Assembly (NCBI GenBank): GCA_945903545.1
Contig: CAMDOO010000012.1
Location: 1 to 52,610 of the forward strand
DNA: 52,610 nucleotides
Direction of reading: 5' to 3'
From: Opitutus sp. GAS368
Lineage (GTDB): Bacteria; Verrucomicrobiota; Verrucomicrobiia; Opitutales; Opitutaceae
Numbering within the stretch: position 1 is the first letter of the stretch; every line of letters starts with the position of its first letter. The notes beneath the pieces were generated by a model. That model saw nothing but the letters and a program-made list of their open reading frames with translations, was not told the DNA's origin and searched no databases. A program made the position numbers and the translations under genes. This document shows, piece by piece, positions 13,381 through 21,705 of the stretch.

Positions 13381-14870
<1,490 letters not shown>

Positions 14871-14874
<4 letters not shown>

Positions 14875-15509
14875 GGCGCGAGAATTCGCACGTTTCGAAA
14901 AGCGATCCGGCCCGCCCGGGGATCGCGGACGCCTTCGTTGATCCGCAATCCGATCACCACCTGCTTCGCCGCCTTGACCCGGGAGAAATCGAAATCGAGC
15001 GAGCCGCTGCGCCATTGCCGGTCTAGGCCGTGGGCTTCGGGCACCGCAAATCGCGACCGCAGCGGGGAGAATCCGTTCCGGGGGTTGTCGGCCGATTCCG
15101 CGCCAACTTCAATCAGTCGGGAGCCGGCCGGACCGGAGTCGGACAGGGGAATGGCGTACACCGCGAACTGACCCGTCCCCTGGCTTGACTCCACCACGCT
15201 GTATTCGAATTCGATCCGACCTCGCCGCACGGGAAATAATTTGTTCGCCCCGACCTTCGAGGTGTCGGCGGTGCGCAGGGTCAGGATGACGCTGCCGGAA
15301 GCGACGCGGTCTATGGTCACGGACGTGGCGATTTCTCCGGCCGGCAGGTAACGCGGCCAGGTGGCGAAGTTATCCTCGAGGGAGGCATAGACCAGCCGCT
15401 GAGGGACGGCGGCAACCGGCCCCTCGGTTCTGCCGCAGCCGGCCAGGACGGCTCCCGAGACGGCGACGAGAAAGGGAATTGCGCACGGAGGAAAGGGAAG
15501 ACGGCTCAT
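14871..15509 (-). CDS. Lipoprotein of unknown function, last gene of the Cys-rich peptide operon
   Basis: The start at 15509 is chosen because it gives a clean lipoprotein signal sequence with lipobox VLAGC (C25) and a four-base ATGA overlap with the upstream glycosyltransferase stop. The product is 211 residues. After the lipidated cysteine the protein looks beta-rich, for example [19 protein letters not shown] and a final [13 protein letters not shown]. This resembles a jelly-roll or carbohydrate-binding-like sandwich, but I cannot name a family. Coupling to the operon suggests a role tied to the secreted peptide, for example an outer-membrane anchor, receptor or self-protection protein; that is inference. 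It ends tail-to-tail with the NtrC-type gene. Confidence 0.78.
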
Positions 15510-16738
15510 GGCGAAGCGACCGCGAAGGCCCGGTTTTTTTGGTGATGTTGCTGGCAGGTCGTCTCGATGAAGGCGGTCAGGTTCATCAAGTCCTGGGCTG
15601 GGTGCATGTGGCTGCCGACGGTCTGCGAACGCAGCCGGTAGGAAGGCTGATGCAGCAGGCCGGCCAGGTGGTGTGCCGCCGTGTCGGCGTTGAAGCACTC
15701 CGGTGGGACGACTCGGGCGACCCCGAGGCGCCGCATCAGTTCGGCGTTCACGGGCTGGCCAAAGACGCGGGGCACCACCAACTGGGGCACGCCGTGGTAG
15801 AGGGCGAGGGCGCTCGTTCCGATTCCTCCGTGATGCACGAGGGCGGCGGCATTCGTCAGCAGGCGCTCCAGTGGGATAAATCGTTCGCAGCGGAACCAGG
15901 GAGGGACGATCGCGCGCAGGGAGGCATCCGTGGCTCCCAGCAGGATGCCCTCGGCGTCCAGGCGCCGGCAGATTTCAATGCAGGTGCGTCGGTATGCTTC
16001 CTCCCAAGCCGCCACGGTTCCGGTGGTCCCGGTGACAAAAACGAGGAGCGGCCGCGCGCCGGCGGGACGTTCGCGGGGTGATTTCACTGCCTCCAGAATG
16101 AAGCCGAACGCGCGGGTGGTCTGAAGGCGGGTGCCCTGACCCACAATCCAGGCCGGCCAAAGCCCGAGCCGGGGAAGTCGGGGCAAAATCGAGCGACTGA
16201 GCCGAACGATCTGGCTGGGTCCCGAATTCCAGCCCCGGTTGCGCAGCCGACTCTCCCAGGAGCGGTAGATCCCGGCACTCAGATTCGATTGGGGACGGCC
16301 GAAGGGAAGCTGTTCAGGCAGCCGCCAGTGGCGCGGCACGGGTACGTCCGTGACGAGGCGCATGCACGGCATGTTCCAGCGGGAATGGCAGTAGAGGTCC
16401 GCCCAGGCGAAGGGGCGATCGACGCTGAGGATCGCGGGAAACCGGGGCGCCGATTGCGCGACCGCAGCCAGGAGCCGTTCGTTCCAGTTGACGGCGTGCC
16501 GCTTGATGAACAAGGCCCGGTAGCGGGTGGAAAGAAGCGGCATGTCGCGGACAGCCGCCCGATGCCCGGACTCGTCCGCGCTGGGAAAGAAATCCAGACC
16601 GCTGGACACCGCCCGTTCCCGAAAGACCGGGGCGGCGACCAAGCCGACGCGATGCCCCCGGCTGCGGAGCGCGCCTCCCAGCCGGATGACGGGCATGACG
16701 TCGCCGCTGGTTCCAAATGAAGCGATGAGAAAGTCCAT
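15506..16738 (-). CDS. GT1-family glycosyltransferase (UDP-glycosyltransferase / MGT-like)
   Basis: The 410-residue protein has a GT-B fold. The N-terminal half begins MDFLIASFGTSGDVMPVIRL, typical of acceptor-binding domains of GT1 enzymes that glycosylate lipids, sterols or natural products. The C-terminal half has the donor-binding signature HHGGIGTSALALYHGVPQLV and PRVFGQPVNAELM. GT1 enzymes transfer a sugar from a nucleotide-sugar to small hydrophobic acceptors, or rarely to peptides. It lies nine bases after the ABC-permease-like gene and overlaps the lipoprotein gene by four bases, so it belongs to the operon. Whether its acceptor is the Cys-rich peptide, a lipid or another metabolite is unknown. 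Confidence 0.85.
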   Translation of the reverse strand: MDFLIASFGTSGDVMPVIRLGGALRSRGHRVGLVAAPVFRERAVSSGLDFFPSADESGHRAAVRDMPLLSTRYRALFIKRHAVNWNERLLAAVAQSAPRFPAILSVDRPFAWADLYCHSRWNMPCMRLVTDVPVPRHWRLPEQLPFGRPQSNLSAGIYRSWESRLRNRGWNSGPSQIVRLSRSILPRLPRLGLWPAWIVGQGTRLQTTRAFGFILEAVKSPRERPAGARPLLVFVTGTTGTVAAWEEAYRRTCIEICRRLDAEGILLGATDASLRAIVPPWFRCERFIPLERLLTNAAALVHHGGIGTSALALYHGVPQLVVPRVFGQPVNAELMRRLGVARVVPPECFNADTAAHHLAGLLHQPSYRLRSQTVGSHMHPAQDLMNLTAFIETTCQQHHQKNRAFAVASP

Positions 16739-16747
16739 GAGAGAGCC

Positions 16748-17437
16748 TCAAAATCGGCGGAACGTGAAGCCGCCGATGGCAAACACCGTAACCACCAGCG
16801 CCGAGCAGAGCAGGGCGAGGATCCGGGAACGGATGGAAACGGCGGCAAACACGCCGATGGCGAGCCAAACGTCCCAGAGCAGCAGCATCGCGGGATGATC
16901 GAATCGCGGAATCGGGACACCGCGCACGCCGATGCCGTTGAACAGGGCGACGAAGCCGAGGCCATGCGCCAGAAGAGCGAAGACCGAACGCGAAAAGGGC
17001 AGAGTCGCGTGCAGGCAGAGCAGCAGAAGGGCAGGATAGATACTGATGGCGGAGCCGGAGGCGGCGGCAATTCTGTCGCCGGGGCCCGGCAGCAAAAGCA
17101 GGGGCACGCCAAAACCGATCGCGATGGCCGCTAGCTTCGCCCCGTAGATCGCGGCCGACGAGATGGGTTTGCCCACGGCGAACGAGCGGGCGTGCCACGG
17201 ACAATCAAGCGTCACGGCGGCAAGCGTTCCCAAGTAGGCAATGAACGTGGCGGAACCTGCGGCGTACTGGCCAAGCAGTCTCTCGGGCGCGGGCCAACCG
17301 ATGAGCGCGACCAGTCTGGAGAGAACCGAGGCCGCGGCGAGGCCCCAGACGCACGCGGCATACCCGCGGACATAGTACAGATCCTTTTTGACGAACGCCT
17401 CCAGGAAGCGGGCCGAGCCGTGGGAAAAGGCCCTCAT
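16748..17437 (-). CDS. Putative ABC transporter permease, polytopic membrane protein
   Basis: The 229-residue protein has about six hydrophobic segments, including ACVWGLAAASVLSRLVALIG near the N-terminus and ILALLCSALVVTVFAIGGF near the C-terminus. I recognise no family motif. Its ATG overlaps the stop of the ABC ATPase gene by four bases (17434-17437), which is typical of a permease paired with its ATPase. The size fits a single-polypeptide half of an ABC-2-like exporter. It is followed after nine bases by the glycosyltransferase. Function as the membrane part of an exporter or immunity pump for the operon's peptide is inference from context. Confidence 0.75.
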   Translation of the reverse strand: MRAFSHGSARFLEAFVKKDLYYVRGYAACVWGLAAASVLSRLVALIGWPAPERLLGQYAAGSATFIAYLGTLAAVTLDCPWHARSFAVGKPISSAAIYGAKLAAIAIGFGVPLLLLPGPGDRIAAASGSAISIYPALLLLCLHATLPFSRSVFALLAHGLGFVALFNGIGVRGVPIPRFDHPAMLLLWDVWLAIGVFAAVSIRSRILALLCSALVVTVFAIGGFTFRRF

Positions 17438-18066
17438 GGTATCACCACCATCCCGGACGCCACGCCCTCCGCATCCTCGTTCCGATGAGCACTATAAAGG
17501 ATTCCTCCGATGCCCTCGGCCCGCCAGGCCGCGAGGCGGGTTCGCAGGTAGCCGCGGCTGGACGTGTCGAGCGTCTCGAAGGGTTCATCGAGCACGAGAA
17601 AGCGGGCGCCGGAGGCGAAGGCGCAGGCGAGCCGGGCCTTCAGGCGCTGGCCGCGGGAGAGGGTCGCCAGCGTTTGGTCCATGGGCACAGCGGTGTCGGT
17701 GCAAAAGCGATGGGCGTCATCGTCGTTCCAAAGCCGATAGAGCGCGCGATGCACCACCGCGTATTGGCGGAACGTCAGGAAGTCATAGGGCGTCTCGGGC
17801 TCGATCACGCTGTATAAATCGCCGCAGGCCGTTGTTGGGTGCGCCGTCAGGTCCACGCCCAGCACGGAAACCGTGCCGCGATCCGGCCGCAGCAGTCCGC
17901 CGGCGATGCGCAGCAGCGTGGTCTTGCCGCGGCCGTTCTCGCCGAGGAGGGCGATCACCTGTCCCGGTTGGATCTTCAGGATAAAACGATCGAGCACGCG
18001 TCCGACCGGCCGCATCGACACGGTGATGTTATCCAATTGGGCGATGGCCGGAGGTTCAGGTTCCAT
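17434..18066 (-). CDS. ABC transporter ATP-binding protein
   Basis: The 210-residue protein is a single nucleotide-binding domain. Walker A is GENGRGKTT (42-50), with Arg in place of the more usual Ser or Ala. The ABC signature is LSRGQ (136-140) instead of LSGGQ. Walker B is FLVLDEP (156-162) and the switch histidine is in YSAHR. It should drive the neighbouring membrane protein with ATP. Its start lies inside the end of the MauE-like gene (11-base overlap), and it overlaps the permease by four bases. Stand-alone ATPases of this size typically serve ABC-2-type exporters, including those for peptides and for self-immunity. Confidence 0.92.
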   Translation of the reverse strand: MEPEPPAIAQLDNITVSMRPVGRVLDRFILKIQPGQVIALLGENGRGKTTLLRIAGGLLRPDRGTVSVLGVDLTAHPTTACGDLYSVIEPETPYDFLTFRQYAVVHRALYRLWNDDDAHRFCTDTAVPMDQTLATLSRGQRLKARLACAFASGARFLVLDEPFETLDTSSRGYLRTRLAAWRAEGIGGILYSAHRNEDAEGVASGMVVIP

Positions 18067-18550
18067 GGCGGTCGGGGGTTCCAGACTCGGTCACGACCGG
18101 GGCGTTATTGGCGCGGGTGCGCAGAAGGCTGACGACCGCGAGACCCAGCAGGCCGGCATTGCGGAGCACGTAGATGTATTGAGGCGAGGTCGCTGTGCTG
18201 CCGAAGGTGAAGCAGGGACAGCTGCTGGCGGGCCGGCCGGCCAGGCCAGTCTGGCCGGCGACGGCCACCTGGTAGACGAAAAAGACGGCGAACATCGCCA
18301 GCGACGCGCTTGCAGCCGTATCGTCATCGCCCCGATTCAGCACGAGCCTGATGCCCACCACCAGCTCGGCCGCGGGGAGGAGCATCGCGAGGGGCTTCCA
18401 TCCGGCCCACTGCAGGAAGGGGAGTACGGAGAAGGCGCGGACAAATTCCTCCAGATGGGTGAGCTTGGCGAGGGCGGCAAGCAGCAGCACGACGCCGAGC
18501 GCGATGCGCAGCAGCGACCGCAGCGAGGAAGGAATCAACGGGTTATTCAT
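18056..18550 (-). CDS. MauE/DoxX-like redox-associated membrane protein
   Basis: The 164-residue protein has four hydrophobic segments: SLLRIALGVVLLLAALAKL, a second around residues 50-68, a third around 82-100, and one near 126-144. A CxC pair, SCPCF (C111, C113), sits before the last segment, as in MauE-like proteins. MauE and its partner MauD are needed for correct disulfide formation in the methylamine dehydrogenase small subunit. A MauE-like protein encoded beside a secreted 8-cysteine peptide therefore suggests oxidative folding of that peptide; this is inference. The gene overlaps both neighbours (8 bases with the rhodanese, 11 with the ABC ATPase). Confidence 0.85.
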   Translation of the reverse strand: MNNPLIPSSLRSLLRIALGVVLLLAALAKLTHLEEFVRAFSVLPFLQWAGWKPLAMLLPAAELVVGIRLVLNRGDDDTAASASLAMFAVFFVYQVAVAGQTGLAGRPASSCPCFTFGSTATSPQYIYVLRNAGLLGLAVVSLLRTRANNAPVVTESGTPDRHGT

Positions 18551-19001
18551 GGGGAAGACCCAGGGCGTTCCATTCGGTCCAGCCGCCGGGGTAGACCGAG
18601 GCGTTGCGGCCGGTGGTCTCCTTAATCATCCGCGCCATTCGGGCGGAGGCCAGGCAGCCACTGCTGTCGCAATAGACGATCAGATTCGGCCCGGCCGGGA
18701 GACGGAGCAGGGTGTCGGGCTCGATCAAGGCCGCCTCCAGGGGAAGGTTGATCGCTCCGGCAATATGCCCGCGCGCAAATACTCCGGGCGGGCGCGCGTC
18801 CACGATCACCGAAGCAGGCTGCCGGGTGAGCAGCATCATCTCGGCCAGCGTCAGCACCTGGGGTTTCAGGGGGTCCAGTTGGACGGGGCTGGCCGTGGCG
18901 GCGCGGGCAGCCGCGGCGATTTCGTCAGCCGCAACCACATAGATGGTCACCGCGCATCCCACCACCTGGGTAACCAGCAGGAAGCTGCGTCGAAATTTCA
19001 T
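18543..19001 (-). CDS. Membrane-anchored rhodanese-like protein
   Basis: The start at 19001 gives a protein of 152 residues with an N-terminal signal or anchor (SFLLVTQVVGCAVTIYVVAA). Frames upstream of it run antisense-like through the Cys-rich gene. A rhodanese-like domain follows: VIVDARPPGVFARGHIAGAI (66-84) and the active-site loop VYCDSSGC, with catalytic C111 and a second cysteine at 116. The end has YPGGWTEWNALGLP, typical of the fold. Rhodanese-like domains carry sulfur as a persulfide or act as thiol-redox modules. It faces the periplasm if the N-terminus is an anchor. Its position between the Cys-rich peptide and the MauE-like gene points to thiol chemistry in the envelope. Confidence 0.87.
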   Translation of the reverse strand: MKFRRSFLLVTQVVGCAVTIYVVAADEIAAAARAATASPVQLDPLKPQVLTLAEMMLLTRQPASVIVDARPPGVFARGHIAGAINLPLEAALIEPDTLLRLPAGPNLIVYCDSSGCLASARMARMIKETTGRNASVYPGGWTEWNALGLPHE

Positions 19002-19016
19002 GACACGAAAACGCCA

Positions 19017-19053
19017 AGACCAGCCGGAAACGCGGCGCGCTTCCGGCTGGTCT
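19017..19053 (-). promoter_or_regulatory. Hairpin after the Cys-rich peptide gene, likely leaky terminator or mRNA stabiliser
   Basis: A 13-bp perfect stem (AGACCAGCCGGAA with TTCCGGCTGGTCT) closes an 11-base loop. On the minus strand it starts 16 bases after the peptide stop and lies 16 bases before the rhodanese start. A weak TTTT follows a few bases later. This is the only sizeable gap in the otherwise overlapping front of the operon. Hairpins in this position often raise the level of a small secreted peptide relative to the downstream processing genes. Confidence 0.7.
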
Positions 19054-19068
19054 GGCACAGGCCCGGAA

Positions 19069-19413
19069 TCAGGCGCAGTTGGAGAGGCACGCCGCGTGTT
19101 CCCAGTCGGCGATTCCGATGCAGTTCTGCATGAAATCGTAGGTGCTGCCGAAGCACGCCTGGGTTTCCTCCGGCGAATTGTTGGCGACCCCCAGGAGGCA
19201 GCCCGCGTAGAGAATATCCCCGGCGGTGCCACAGCTGTACTGCAGGGCGAGCCACTCGCCGTCGCAGGCGTACAGGCAGGCGCCGGTCGTGATGCGGTCC
19301 CAGAAGTAGGAAAAGAAATCCGAAATCCATCCGGCGTGCGCAGGCGTGGCCGACATGCCATAAAGCGTGGTGGCAGCCACCATCGCTCCGAGCTTTTTTC
19401 TGGTGTATATCAT
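19069..19413 (-). CDS. Secreted 8-cysteine peptide with palindromic cysteine spacing
   Basis: The 114-residue product has a signal peptide with a likely cleavage after SATPAHA (27/28), leaving about 87 residues. The mature part opens with an aromatic, amphipathic stretch (GWISDFFSYFWDRITTG). It contains eight cysteines at 46, 50, 61, 72, 87, 98, 109 and 113. The gaps between them are 3, 10, 10, 14, 10, 10 and 3 residues, a perfect mirror pattern. I checked this by translating the minus strand by hand. It suggests two helical hairpins stapled by disulfides, or a pseudo-symmetric four-helix fold. I do not recognise the family. It starts with a four-base overlap from the upstream gene and is followed by a hairpin. 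A structural envelope peptide, toxin or bacteriocin, signal or metal-binding peptide are all possible. Function is unknown. Confidence 0.85.
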   Translation of the reverse strand: MIYTRKKLGAMVAATTLYGMSATPAHAGWISDFFSYFWDRITTGACLYACDGEWLALQYSCGTAGDILYAGCLLGVANNSPEETQACFGSTYDFMQNCIGIADWEHAACLSNCA

Positions 19414-20333
19414 GGTAGGACTATTTTTGGGTTTTGGTTGATCCGGGACATGAGCGTGTAGTGGCGCGAAAGGGCGGTGTACTCGTTCATGTCCTTCGGA
19501 AAGTGGAGGGTGGCGCCGGCCGGGACGGCGAAGTCCGCGGGGGAAAACGGCGGGGCCAGGTTCACCATGCGGCAGGCTTCATCGGTGATCGTTTGGCCAT
19601 TGCCGGCTATGATGTGGCGCCGGACCACGAAGTTGAGGTTCGGATCCACATAGTACTCGGTCCGGGCGACGGCGAACGACTCCGGGTCGTGACTCTCCGT
19701 CTTGGTGCCGCCCGCGGCGGCCGTTTGCTGCTGTGCGACCATCCGACGCAGCGCCTCGCCATGCTGCGCGACGGTGTCCGGATGCTCGATGCGCACGATC
19801 ACGGTGCAGGCGCGATCGTTCCAAGTTTCGGTACGGACGAGATAGCGAGAAGGGCGGCGGGTGGATTTTGGGACCTCGGCAAGAACCGCCTCGATCGGTG
19901 CGGTTTCCATGCCTGGGTATTTGATCGCGGCCCCCGGGAAGAGCCGCCAGCGGCCGGATTCGTTGAGCACGGTCACATCGGTCGTGGTCAGGAGCTGGCC
20001 GTCGCCGCTGGTCCTGCCTGCAAACTCGCGCGTGGTCTGCTCGGCTAGGACCCCATGGGCCAGCCTCATCCGGCGCCTCGTCAGGGTCAGGGTCATGCCC
20101 TGCGCGAGGGCCTGGACCTGGACCGTTTCGTACGCCGCCAGCGTTCCCTCGTGGCGCAGGGCCGCGGTCAATGCATCCGGGACCTTGGGACTGGCCTGCT
20201 CGTAGAGTGACGCCTGTGCACTCAACGGCCGGGACGCCAGGCGCGGCAGGAACACCGCGCCGCAGCCGACCAAGACGGCTCCGAGGATCAGCGCGACCGC
20301 GCGGCGGGAGAGAAAAGGGCCGGCGGGGTTCAT
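19410..20333 (-). CDS. Envelope-anchored protein with LolA-like features, unknown function
   Basis: The 307-residue protein has one N-terminal hydrophobic segment (about 12-29). This contains a lipobox-like LVGC at C24, so it may be either a lipoprotein or a membrane-anchored protein. The remainder looks beta-rich with features of LolA/LppX-type sheets: TLTLTRRRMRLAHGVLAE, then YLVRTETWNDRACTVIVRIE, then EYYVDPNLNFVVRRHIIA, and a terminal PADFAVPAGATLHFP. Proteins of that fold carry lipids or lipoproteins across the periplasm. I would not assign a function. It overlaps the gene before it and the Cys-rich peptide gene after it by four bases each, so the three are translated as a unit. Confidence 0.72.
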   Translation of the reverse strand: MNPAGPFLSRRAVALILGAVLVGCGAVFLPRLASRPLSAQASLYEQASPKVPDALTAALRHEGTLAAYETVQVQALAQGMTLTLTRRRMRLAHGVLAEQTTREFAGRTSGDGQLLTTTDVTVLNESGRWRLFPGAAIKYPGMETAPIEAVLAEVPKSTRRPSRYLVRTETWNDRACTVIVRIEHPDTVAQHGEALRRMVAQQQTAAAGGTKTESHDPESFAVARTEYYVDPNLNFVVRRHIIAGNGQTITDEACRMVNLAPPFSPADFAVPAGATLHFPKDMNEYTALSRHYTLMSRINQNPKIVLP

Positions 20334-21292
20334 TTCGGTGCAGCCGGTTGCTTCATCAACTCCAGGCCCCGCATGGTGCCGAGAGTGCGTTCCCTCTGGA
20401 ACTGGCGAAATGCCTCCAGTTGGCCGGGCGCAAGCACGGCGGCGGCTTGGGCGGAAGCGCGCTCATCGTTCTCCTCCATCGCCTGGCGGAGCCGGCCGAG
20501 GGCGACATCGTCCACGACCCCTTGGGGCAGTCCGCTCATGGCCGTGTCCATGGATCCTTGGGAGGAACGGGACGACGCGAGAAGCGCGACGAGTGCCGCC
20601 TGCTGATCCGGTACGAGCGGTTCGGAGGTGCGCGCCAGGCGTTGGGTCAGGGCGTCAACCTGCAGCCTGATCGGAAGGGATTCCGTGAATTCCCGGAGCT
20701 CGGCGTAATGCTGCGGCGTGAGCGCGGCCTGAAGGCGCTGGTCGAGCGCACGCTGGCTCTCGGCAAATTCCTCGGTCAACCGGACGCGTTCTTCGGGGCT
20801 GGCCGCGACCAGGCTCATGCCATGGTCGGTATTGGCCAGGTCGCCCTCGAGCAAAAGGTCGAACACCGCCTGACGGTCATTGGGCGCGAGGTCCCATTGG
20901 TTCAGCAACCGGCCGTAACGTTGATCGAGCTGGACCCGCTTCAGGGCGGCCATCCGGTCCCGCAGCGGAGTCGACTTGGCGAATTCGGCGGCAAGTCGTG
21001 CGGGGGTGGTTGGAGCTTCCATCTCCCGCATCGGGGCAAGGGCGGCTGAGCCCGGCTGGGATGAAGGCGCGCCTTCGACGGCGGTCGACACTGCCGCGGT
21101 CGACGGATGGCTGGGCCGCGCCGCCGGTTTCTTCGGGCCCATGGGAGAGGCGACATGCCCGAGGGGGTTCGCCTGCGTGCGGGAAAGCCACTGCGACACG
21201 GCGAACCCGGCGGCTCCTGCGGCAAGGGCCACCAGAACGATGAAAGCACCCCGGTATTTGGGGTGGTAAGGGCCGCGTGAGGAGGAAGACAT
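20330..21292 (-). CDS. Membrane-anchored protein with four LTxxQ-like helical repeats, first gene of the operon
   Basis: The 320-residue protein has a single transmembrane segment (about 14-36), then a Pro/Ala-rich linker (about 45-95). A helical periplasmic region follows, in which a motif like L-T/A-P-x-Q-x-x-A recurs: LAPNDRQAVFDLL (135), LTPQHYAELREF (191), LVPDQQAALVALL (226) and LAPGQLEAFRQF (287). LTxxQ motifs mark Spy/CpxP-type periplasmic chaperones and stress sensors, so a chaperone or sensing role is a reasonable guess. The similarity is by motif only. It is the first gene after a 336-base upstream region containing an AT-rich palindrome. It overlaps the LolA-like gene by four bases. 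Confidence 0.7.
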   Translation of the reverse strand: MSSSSRGPYHPKYRGAFIVLVALAAGAAGFAVSQWLSRTQANPLGHVASPMGPKKPAARPSHPSTAAVSTAVEGAPSSQPGSAALAPMREMEAPTTPARLAAEFAKSTPLRDRMAALKRVQLDQRYGRLLNQWDLAPNDRQAVFDLLLEGDLANTDHGMSLVAASPEERVRLTEEFAESQRALDQRLQAALTPQHYAELREFTESLPIRLQVDALTQRLARTSEPLVPDQQAALVALLASSRSSQGSMDTAMSGLPQGVVDDVALGRLRQAMEENDERASAQAAAVLAPGQLEAFRQFQRERTLGTMRGLELMKQPAAPK

Positions 21293-21628: not shown

Positions 21629-21705
21629 GTCCCCGTAGCTCAGCTGGATAGAGCATCGGTTTTCTAAACCGACGGTCGCGTGTTCGAGCCACGCCGGGGA
21701 CGCCA
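21629..21705 (+). tRNA. tRNA-Arg (UCU anticodon)
   Basis: The cloverleaf is complete. The acceptor stem pairs GTCCCCG with CGGGGAC. The D arm is GCTCAGCTGGATAGAGC. The anticodon stem TCGGT/ACCGA encloses loop TTTCTAA with anticodon TCT. The T arm is GCGTG-TTCGAGC-CACGC. The discriminator G is followed by an encoded CCA. It reads AGA codons, which are rare in this GC-rich genome. Confidence 0.95.

What the first reader, a model, noticed from the sequence alone, without database searches (positions are those of the whole stretch)
19069..19413. Perfectly palindromic cysteine spacing 3-10-10-14-10-10-3 in a secreted 114-residue peptide
Seen: cysteines at 46, 50, 61, 72, 87, 98, 109 and 113, verified by hand translation. 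The mirror symmetry suggests an internal inverted pseudo-symmetry, such as two CX3C helical hairpins back to back. A predicted cleavage AHA/G leaves an aromatic amphipathic N-terminus (GWISDFFSYFW). I recognise no family. Halocin-C8-like or other Cys-rich bacteriocins are only a loose comparison.
Basis: seen in the sequence. Interest (0 to 1): 0.8.

Follow-up and report, generated by a model that had tools for sequence, protein, structure and literature searches.

The report
Disulfide-stapled secreted helical hairpin peptide
A bacterium carries, in a variable gene slot beside a tRNA, a small exported protein whose eight cysteines are spaced like rungs of a ladder so that two helices can be stapled together, next to genes that may make those staples; no relative was found, and it may be a new kind of secreted competition peptide.

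Summary
Steps of 4, 11 and 11 put each half's cysteines on one helical face. AlphaFold2 without an alignment gives two helices (29-78, 81-113; best model pLDDT 90, other four 72 to 38) turning at the mirror axis. Best reading: one antiparallel hairpin with four nested disulfides, not two hairpins back to back. Its gene lies in a tightly packed nine-gene run with a CX4C rhodanese, a MauE-like membrane protein, an ABC pair and a GT1 glycosyltransferase. The rhodanese-MauE pair is common in the phylum; this MauE has CPC where 63 of 63 aligned rows have CGC. The slot beside tRNA-Arg holds other genes in a congener. No homologue was found in 386 other phylum genomes, plasmids, phages or family libraries. 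Function is inferred: an exported antagonism (bacteriocin-like) peptide oxidised by its neighbours, at modest confidence; strong acidity and lack of assay or homologue count against. MauE with precursors of at least 8 Cys is already on record as candidate RiPP clusters (PMC7794033).

The parts
19069..19413 (-). Cys-ladder peptide gene, 114 aa; Sec-type signal 1-27 read from sequence (AHA/G), mature 28-114 with 8 Cys
   Evidence: models
19410..20333 (-). 307 aa protein with one N-terminal TM-like (possibly lipoprotein) segment, no Pfam/NCBIfam/PHROGs match; ATGA overlap with the peptide gene
   Evidence: in 140 other genomes only one E 9.8e-4 stretch with 6 stops
20330..21292 (-). 320 aa protein with one N-terminal TM-like segment, no family over a cut-off; ATGA overlap with the 307 aa gene
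19015..19062 (-). strong RNA hairpin between peptide stop and rhodanese start
   Evidence: -43.6 kcal/mol for 18999-19072, z -5.84, 0 of 200 shuffles as stable; not among the 6 terminator-like sites
18543..19001 (-). membrane-anchored rhodanese-like protein, 152 aa, CX4C (Cys 111, 116)
   Evidence: Pfam Rhodanese 8e-16; both Cys present in 50 of 50 aligned rows of relatives, 46 distinct
18056..18550 (-). MauE/DoxX-like membrane protein, 164 aa, CPC motif (Cys 111, 113)
   Evidence: Pfam MauE 7.2e-18, over cut-off; CGC in 63 of 63 aligned rows of relatives, 59 distinct
17434..18066 (-). ABC transporter ATPase, 210 aa
   Evidence: Pfam ABC_tran 4.6e-20
16748..17437 (-). probable ABC permease, 229 aa, 6 TM-like segments
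   Evidence: no match at E <= 1e-4 in 386 other phylum genomes
15506..16738 (-). GT1-type (EryCIII-like) glycosyltransferase, 410 aa, 9 nt after the permease gene
   Evidence: Pfam EryCIII-like_C 1.3e-20; partial 30-37% matches in 11 of 140 other genomes at E <= 1e-15
14871..15509 (-). last ORF of the run, 212 aa from ATG 15509 (ATGA overlap with the glycosyltransferase gene), lipoprotein-like start; listed mechanically from GTG 15698 as 275 aa
   Evidence: no Pfam match
21629..21705 (+). tRNA-Arg (TCT), edge of the variable slot
   Evidence: same tRNA in congener G002

Best explanation
The gene encodes a precursor exported through Sec (inferred from the N-terminus). The mature part folds as one antiparallel alpha-helical hairpin whose helices are stapled by four nested disulfides, 46-113, 50-109, 61-98 and 72-87 (inferred from geometry and a model). 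The downstream rhodanese (CX4C) and MauE-like membrane protein (CPC) form a thiol relay that makes or shuffles these disulfides outside the cytoplasm (inferred). The strong RNA hairpin after the peptide stop lets the peptide be made in excess over the enzymes (inferred). The ABC pair exports the product or protects the producer (inferred), and the run is a cargo of a variable slot beside tRNA-Arg (shown for the slot in one congener). The likeliest role is a secreted antagonism peptide, bacteriocin-like, made rigid by its ladder of disulfides. Likelihoods: helical hairpin with nested disulfides about 0.75; rhodanese-MauE as its oxidation partner about 0.6; antagonism role about 0.4.
For: All four mirror pairs sum to 159, so the turn should lie at 79.5; the mature model has helices 29-78 and 81-113, with the break there. 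Helical-wheel positions 0/40/60/80 and 0/20/40/80 degrees. The full-length model agrees: helices 45-75 and 81-111. Genes packed with ATGA or short overlaps before and after the peptide. MauE over the Pfam cut-off; Cys-X-Cys kept in 64 of 64 MauE rows and CX4C in 51 of 51 rhodanese rows, window included. Of 30 MauE loci scanned, three carry a Cys-rich ORF about 0.8 kb downstream of MauE; one of them, the only one tested, is methylamine dehydrogenase light chain (PF02975, 6.8e-47). PMC7794033 (passages): MauE is speculated to form disulfides of that subunit, and three candidate RiPP families of Streptomyces hold mauE and a predicted precursor of at least 8 Cys. Cargo nature: congener G002 has the same tRNA-Arg and response-regulator gene on one contig with about 3.9 kb of other genes between; none of nine cassette proteins matched three congener stretches by tblastn at E <= 0.01, while a control gene did. 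RNA hairpin z -5.84.
Against: The mature peptide is acidic (pI 4.05, charge about -9), unlike most membrane-active bacteriocins (recalled). No homologue, so no conservation test. Only one of five models per run is confident (70, 60, 58, 41, 37 and 90, 72, 64, 41, 38). No immunity gene or outer-membrane exit is recognised. The rhodanese-MauE pair usually occurs without such a peptide: 42 of 63 MauE rows have the rhodanese next door and no other Cys-ladder ORF was seen in those stretches, so the pair may be a general redox module that happens to lie here. The 67 nt gap and hairpin after the peptide could also mean separate transcripts.
Confidence: 0.42

Rival explanations
1. The same stapled hairpin, but not a weapon: a periplasmic or envelope protein (structural, signalling, or partner of the anchored 307 and 320 aa proteins encoded just upstream), oxidised by the rhodanese-MauE pair.
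For: ATGA coupling with the two anchored proteins; acidic peptide; elsewhere the rhodanese often follows a secreted CGC protein (14 of 50 loci by motif; the 2 tested were DUF1573).
Against: Not found in the congeners' stretches or in searched relatives, unlike a house-keeping part; ABC pair and glycosyltransferase alongside.
Confidence: 0.33
2. A glycocin-like glycosylated hairpin: the GT1 enzyme glycosylates the loop (Ser80/Thr84 region) and the ABC pair exports it.
For: Glycocin clusters described in PMC12457901 (passages) hold a precursor, a glycosyltransferase, thioredoxin-like proteins and a transporter, and the products have nested disulfides; the run here holds analogous roles.
Against: No C39 peptidase domain in the nine genes, glycosyltransferase of another type; no double-glycine leader seen (common in glycocins, though that paper reports one without). 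Position is the only link between the glycosyltransferase and the peptide.
Confidence: 0.1
3. A thiol or metal carrier: the cysteines stay reduced and bind metal, or take sulfur from the rhodanese.
For: Eight Cys, rhodanese next door; CHCH-type copper proteins are also Cys-bearing hairpins (recalled; titles in the listing).
Against: An exact mirror register is what cross-helix disulfides need; there is no CX2C or CXC motif; MauE is tied in print to disulfide formation.
Confidence: 0.1
4. Spurious ORF or chance symmetry.
For: No homologue in any collection searched; first-position GC lower than in the neighbours.
Against: Third-position GC, ATGA overlap, signal-like N-terminus, mirror probability 6.0e-5 and helical facing.
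Confidence: 0.04

Closest known systems
MauE-containing candidate RiPP families of Streptomyces (decRiPPter, PMC7794033)
   Same: mauE homologue in a compact cluster with a predicted precursor of at least 8 Cys (passages read)
   Different: here a rhodanese partner, Sec-type signal and mirror spacing; the precursor sequences of that paper were not seen, so homology is untested
Glycocins (glycocin F, thermoglycocin)
   Same: nested disulfides in a small secreted peptide; cluster with transporter, thioredoxin-like protein and glycosyltransferase (PMC12457901, passages)
   Different: two nested disulfides there, four proposed here; no C39 transporter in the run, another glycosyltransferase type
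Mitochondrial CX3C / CX9C helical hairpins and Mia40
   Same: helical hairpin with nested disulfides (recalled), CX3C at the open ends, an oxidase with a CPC motif (Mia40 CPC: abstracts in the listing)
   Different: no homology shown; four rungs proposed rather than two; CX10C steps; MauE is a membrane protein
Methylamine dehydrogenase light chain with MauE
   Same: Cys-rich exported protein encoded near MauE (L035)
   Different: other sequence and family; a rhodanese pairs with MauE here

Membership tests
MauE-associated Cys-rich candidate RiPP clusters | MauE homologue in the cluster | tested here: met
   Pfam MauE 65.6 bits, cut-off 27
MauE-associated Cys-rich candidate RiPP clusters | precursor with at least 8 Cys | tested here: met
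   8 Cys
MauE-associated Cys-rich candidate RiPP clusters | precursor homologous to those of the paper | not testable with these tools
Glycocin | C39-peptidase ABC transporter (PCAT) in the cluster | tested here: not met
   ABC ATPase of 210 aa matches ABC_tran, no peptidase family; permease without Pfam match; the rest of the genome was not searched for one
Glycocin | glycosyltransferase of the glycocin type | tested here: not met
   EryCIII-like GT1 enzyme instead; no direct comparison with a glycocin enzyme was run
Glycocin | nested disulfides joining two helices | tested here: inconclusive
   geometry and models agree, bonds not measured
Halocin C8-like or any other curated peptide family | match to a family profile | tested here: not met
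   0 families at E up to 1 in Pfam and NCBIfam, 0 at E up to 0.1 in PHROGs; whether a halocin C8 profile is in those libraries was not checked
Twin CX9C / twin CX3C proteins | two CX9C or two CX3C motifs as the only rungs (recalled definition) | tested here: not met
   CX3C at both outer ends but CX10C steps between, eight Cys
Bacteriocin (functional class) | inhibits other bacteria; producer immune | not testable with these tools
   needs an assay

The most novel reading that the evidence does not exclude
A bacterial counterpart of the Mia40 relay: a CX4C rhodanese and a MauE-like membrane protein that has CPC in place of the otherwise uniform CGC zip up a four-rung CX3C/CX10C helical hairpin, the founding member of a class of ladder-stapled exported peptides carried in a variable tRNA-side slot.
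Probability: 0.18. Interest if true: 0.8.

Novelty: new variant of a known kind. Interest (0 to 1): 0.52.

Why it matters
If right, cysteine spacing alone predicts the disulfide pattern and fold of an orphan peptide, and its neighbours give a testable function to rhodanese-MauE modules, which are common in this phylum and for which no function was found in the papers seen here. A four-rung stapled hairpin would also be a very rigid natural scaffold.

Tried and rejected
Homologues by sequence: own genome, 140 relatives, 386 other phylum genomes, evenly drawn, GTDB genome contigs, viral contigs, plasmids, phages, PDB sequences (one hit at E 0.22). One search gave 12 weak matches at E <= 0.05 and two at E <= 0.01. 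One search printed 8 of its 20 alignments; one search counted kept cysteines for all 20 rows: at most 3 were kept. L011 keeps 3 of 4 covered (50, 61, 72), but in a 356 aa frame with a beta-lactamase-family match; L015 keeps 3 of 3 over 35 residues at 10.6 bits, in a 76 aa frame; L018 keeps 3 of 5. I take all as chance. The one genome-contig hit (L004) keeps 1 of 3 and is a shared 10-residue string in a 570 aa metallo-hydrolase-like ORF that I take for RNase J (recalled).

Structure comparison: Foldseek gave no PDB match with E below 0.8 for either model; the second look gave helical hairpins at Z 8-9 (6fbv_D 9.3, 3.5 A, 77 aligned; 7zcg_B 9.2, 3.6 A, 81 aligned), which the tool warns may be only a common arrangement. 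No fold relative is claimed or excluded.

Idea that the rhodanese-MauE pair marks other Cys-ladder peptides: 70 stretches fetched around MauE genes (L022-L091) scanned, none found; only the methylamine dehydrogenase-type ORFs came up. Idea that the permease or the 307 aa protein leads to sister cassettes: no usable relatives. The glycosyltransferase has partial relatives only, which neither supports nor excludes a link. Paper one search (MauE, disulfide) returned unrelated papers in the 20 listed of 472; one search (Verrucomicrobi, bacteriocin) listed 15 of 1,123, none about such a peptide by title. Statements on print rest on searches only, of which listings were seen, plus passages of PMC12457901, PMC7794033, PMC2474590 and PMC9312934.

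Full report
Observation. The ORF at 19069-19413 is on the minus strand, 114 aa, ATG to TGA. Given eight cysteines and this span, a perfect mirror has probability 6.0e-5, uncorrected for the number of ORFs looked at. In 92 held sequences (529,780 bases, partly overlapping) no other ORF of 40-200 aa with at least 6 Cys had a regular arrangement of this kind; two had four pairs by virtue of 10 and 15 Cys. Third-position GC (0.82) is like the neighbours' (0.77-0.82), first-position GC (0.50) is lower than theirs (0.64-0.73), and the gene overlaps the upstream one by ATGA. The genome and its relatives are unnamed; I take the phylum for Verrucomicrobiota from recalled features, and no call shows it.

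What the symmetry means. In an antiparallel helical hairpin, residues facing each other have a constant sum of numbers. All four pairs sharing one sum is what four cross-helix disulfides need. Within each half the steps are 4, 11, 11 (and 11, 11, 4), which put the cysteines within 80 degrees on one face (a random set of four in that helix is as well aligned in 1.6% of trials; the halves are mirror images, so this is one test, not two). AlphaFold2 from the single sequence gives helices 45-75 and 81-111 (precursor, best mean pLDDT 70.1, residues 1-29 and 36-40 under 50) and 29-78 and 81-113 (mature part, best mean pLDDT 90.3, pTM 0.62, the other four models 72, 64, 41 and 38). The break at 79-80 coincides with the mirror axis at 79.5. 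Sulfur distances could not be read, so the pairing is inferred.

Surroundings. Downstream on the same strand lie a rhodanese-like protein, a MauE/DoxX-like protein, an ABC ATPase, a six-TM protein that is probably its permease, a GT1-type glycosyltransferase and a 212 aa ORF; junctions from the rhodanese on are overlaps of 4 to 11 nt or, once, a gap of 9 nt. Upstream, with ATGA overlaps, lie two anchored proteins without family. The only larger gap, 67 nt, follows the peptide and holds a very stable RNA hairpin (-43.6 kcal/mol, z -5.84, 0 of 200 shuffles), which the consensus scan did not list as a terminator. A hairpin after the structural gene is a common way to raise one product over the rest (general knowledge).

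Redox pair. MauE-family matches occur in 161 of 387 genomes of the phylum at E <= 1e-5, own genome included. From 70 stretches fetched around such genes I collected 63 MauE rows (59 distinct) by iterating from the window's MauE; 42 have a rhodanese within 120 nt upstream on the same strand. Both rhodanese cysteines (CX4C) are present in 50 of 50 aligned rows (46 distinct). MauE's CXC is CGC in 63 of 63; the window's copy has CPC. In 14 of 50 loci an ORF just before the rhodanese carries a CXC(T/S) motif; the two tested are DUF1573 proteins. DUF1573 and rhodanese members are listed among predicted selenoproteins (PMC9312934, passages), which fits redox-active cysteines. About 0.8 kb downstream of MauE in L035 lies the methylamine dehydrogenase light chain, and similar ORFs lie so in L039 and L046. 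PMC2474590 (passages) reports mauBEDA in Methylacidiphilum, of the Verrucomicrobia. PMC7794033 (passages) says MauE has been speculated to make disulfides there and that three candidate RiPP families join mauE with precursors of at least 8 Cys. So a MauE-like protein beside a Cys-rich product is a pattern on record, and this cluster is a distinct case of it.

Mobility. A tRNA-Arg lies at 21629-21705. In congener G002 the same tRNA-Arg and the orthologue of the response regulator at 13381-14874 (89% identity) lie on one contig with about 3.9 kb of other genes between. In congener G001 the flanks lie on two contigs with other genes next to them, so the slot is shown in one congener only. None of the nine cassette proteins matched those stretches at E <= 0.01, while the response-regulator control matched both L104 and L105. 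The best MauE-family scores are 27.3 bits in G001 (just over the cut-off of 27) and 25.5 in G002, against 65.5 here; the own genome has a second one at 27.0. The permease has no match in 386 other phylum genomes.

Function. Export and oxidation are likely; the job is not shown. For antagonism: rare cargo, compact cluster, ABC pair, a peptide that may be made in excess. Against: charge about -9, no homologue, no recognised immunity gene, no outer-membrane exit. A non-toxic envelope role is nearly as likely. The resemblance to glycocin clusters is one of roles only; two features were tested and not met (membership table). The resemblance to Mia40 and its hairpins is one of chemistry; CPC in place of CGC is one substitution in one sequence.

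Noticed in passing
window 18056-19001 and loci L022-L091: A two-gene module, CX4C rhodanese plus CXC MauE-like membrane protein, is common in the phylum (42 of 63 MauE rows collected), in 14 of 50 loci after an ORF with a CXC(T/S) motif; its function was not found in the papers seen.
   Followed up: partly
window 18212-18220 (MauE residues 111-113): The window's MauE has CPC where 63 of 63 aligned rows have CGC.
   Followed up: partly
window 19015-19062: Near-perfect inverted repeat with a very stable RNA fold between the peptide gene and the rhodanese gene.
   Followed up: partly
L105 313-3945 and L104 5586-10903: The slot in congener G002, and the stretch after the response regulator in G001, carry other genes, among them a protein of about 540 aa in G001 without Pfam match that by eye resembles two adjoining ORFs in G002.
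   Followed up: no
L035 2658-3215 (similar ORFs in L039, L046): Methylamine dehydrogenase light chain about 0.8 kb from MauE in class-level relatives.
   Followed up: yes
L004 5531-7243: A 570 aa RNase J-like ORF shares the string LYACDGEWLA with the peptide by coincidence; a warning about short-word matches.
   Followed up: yes
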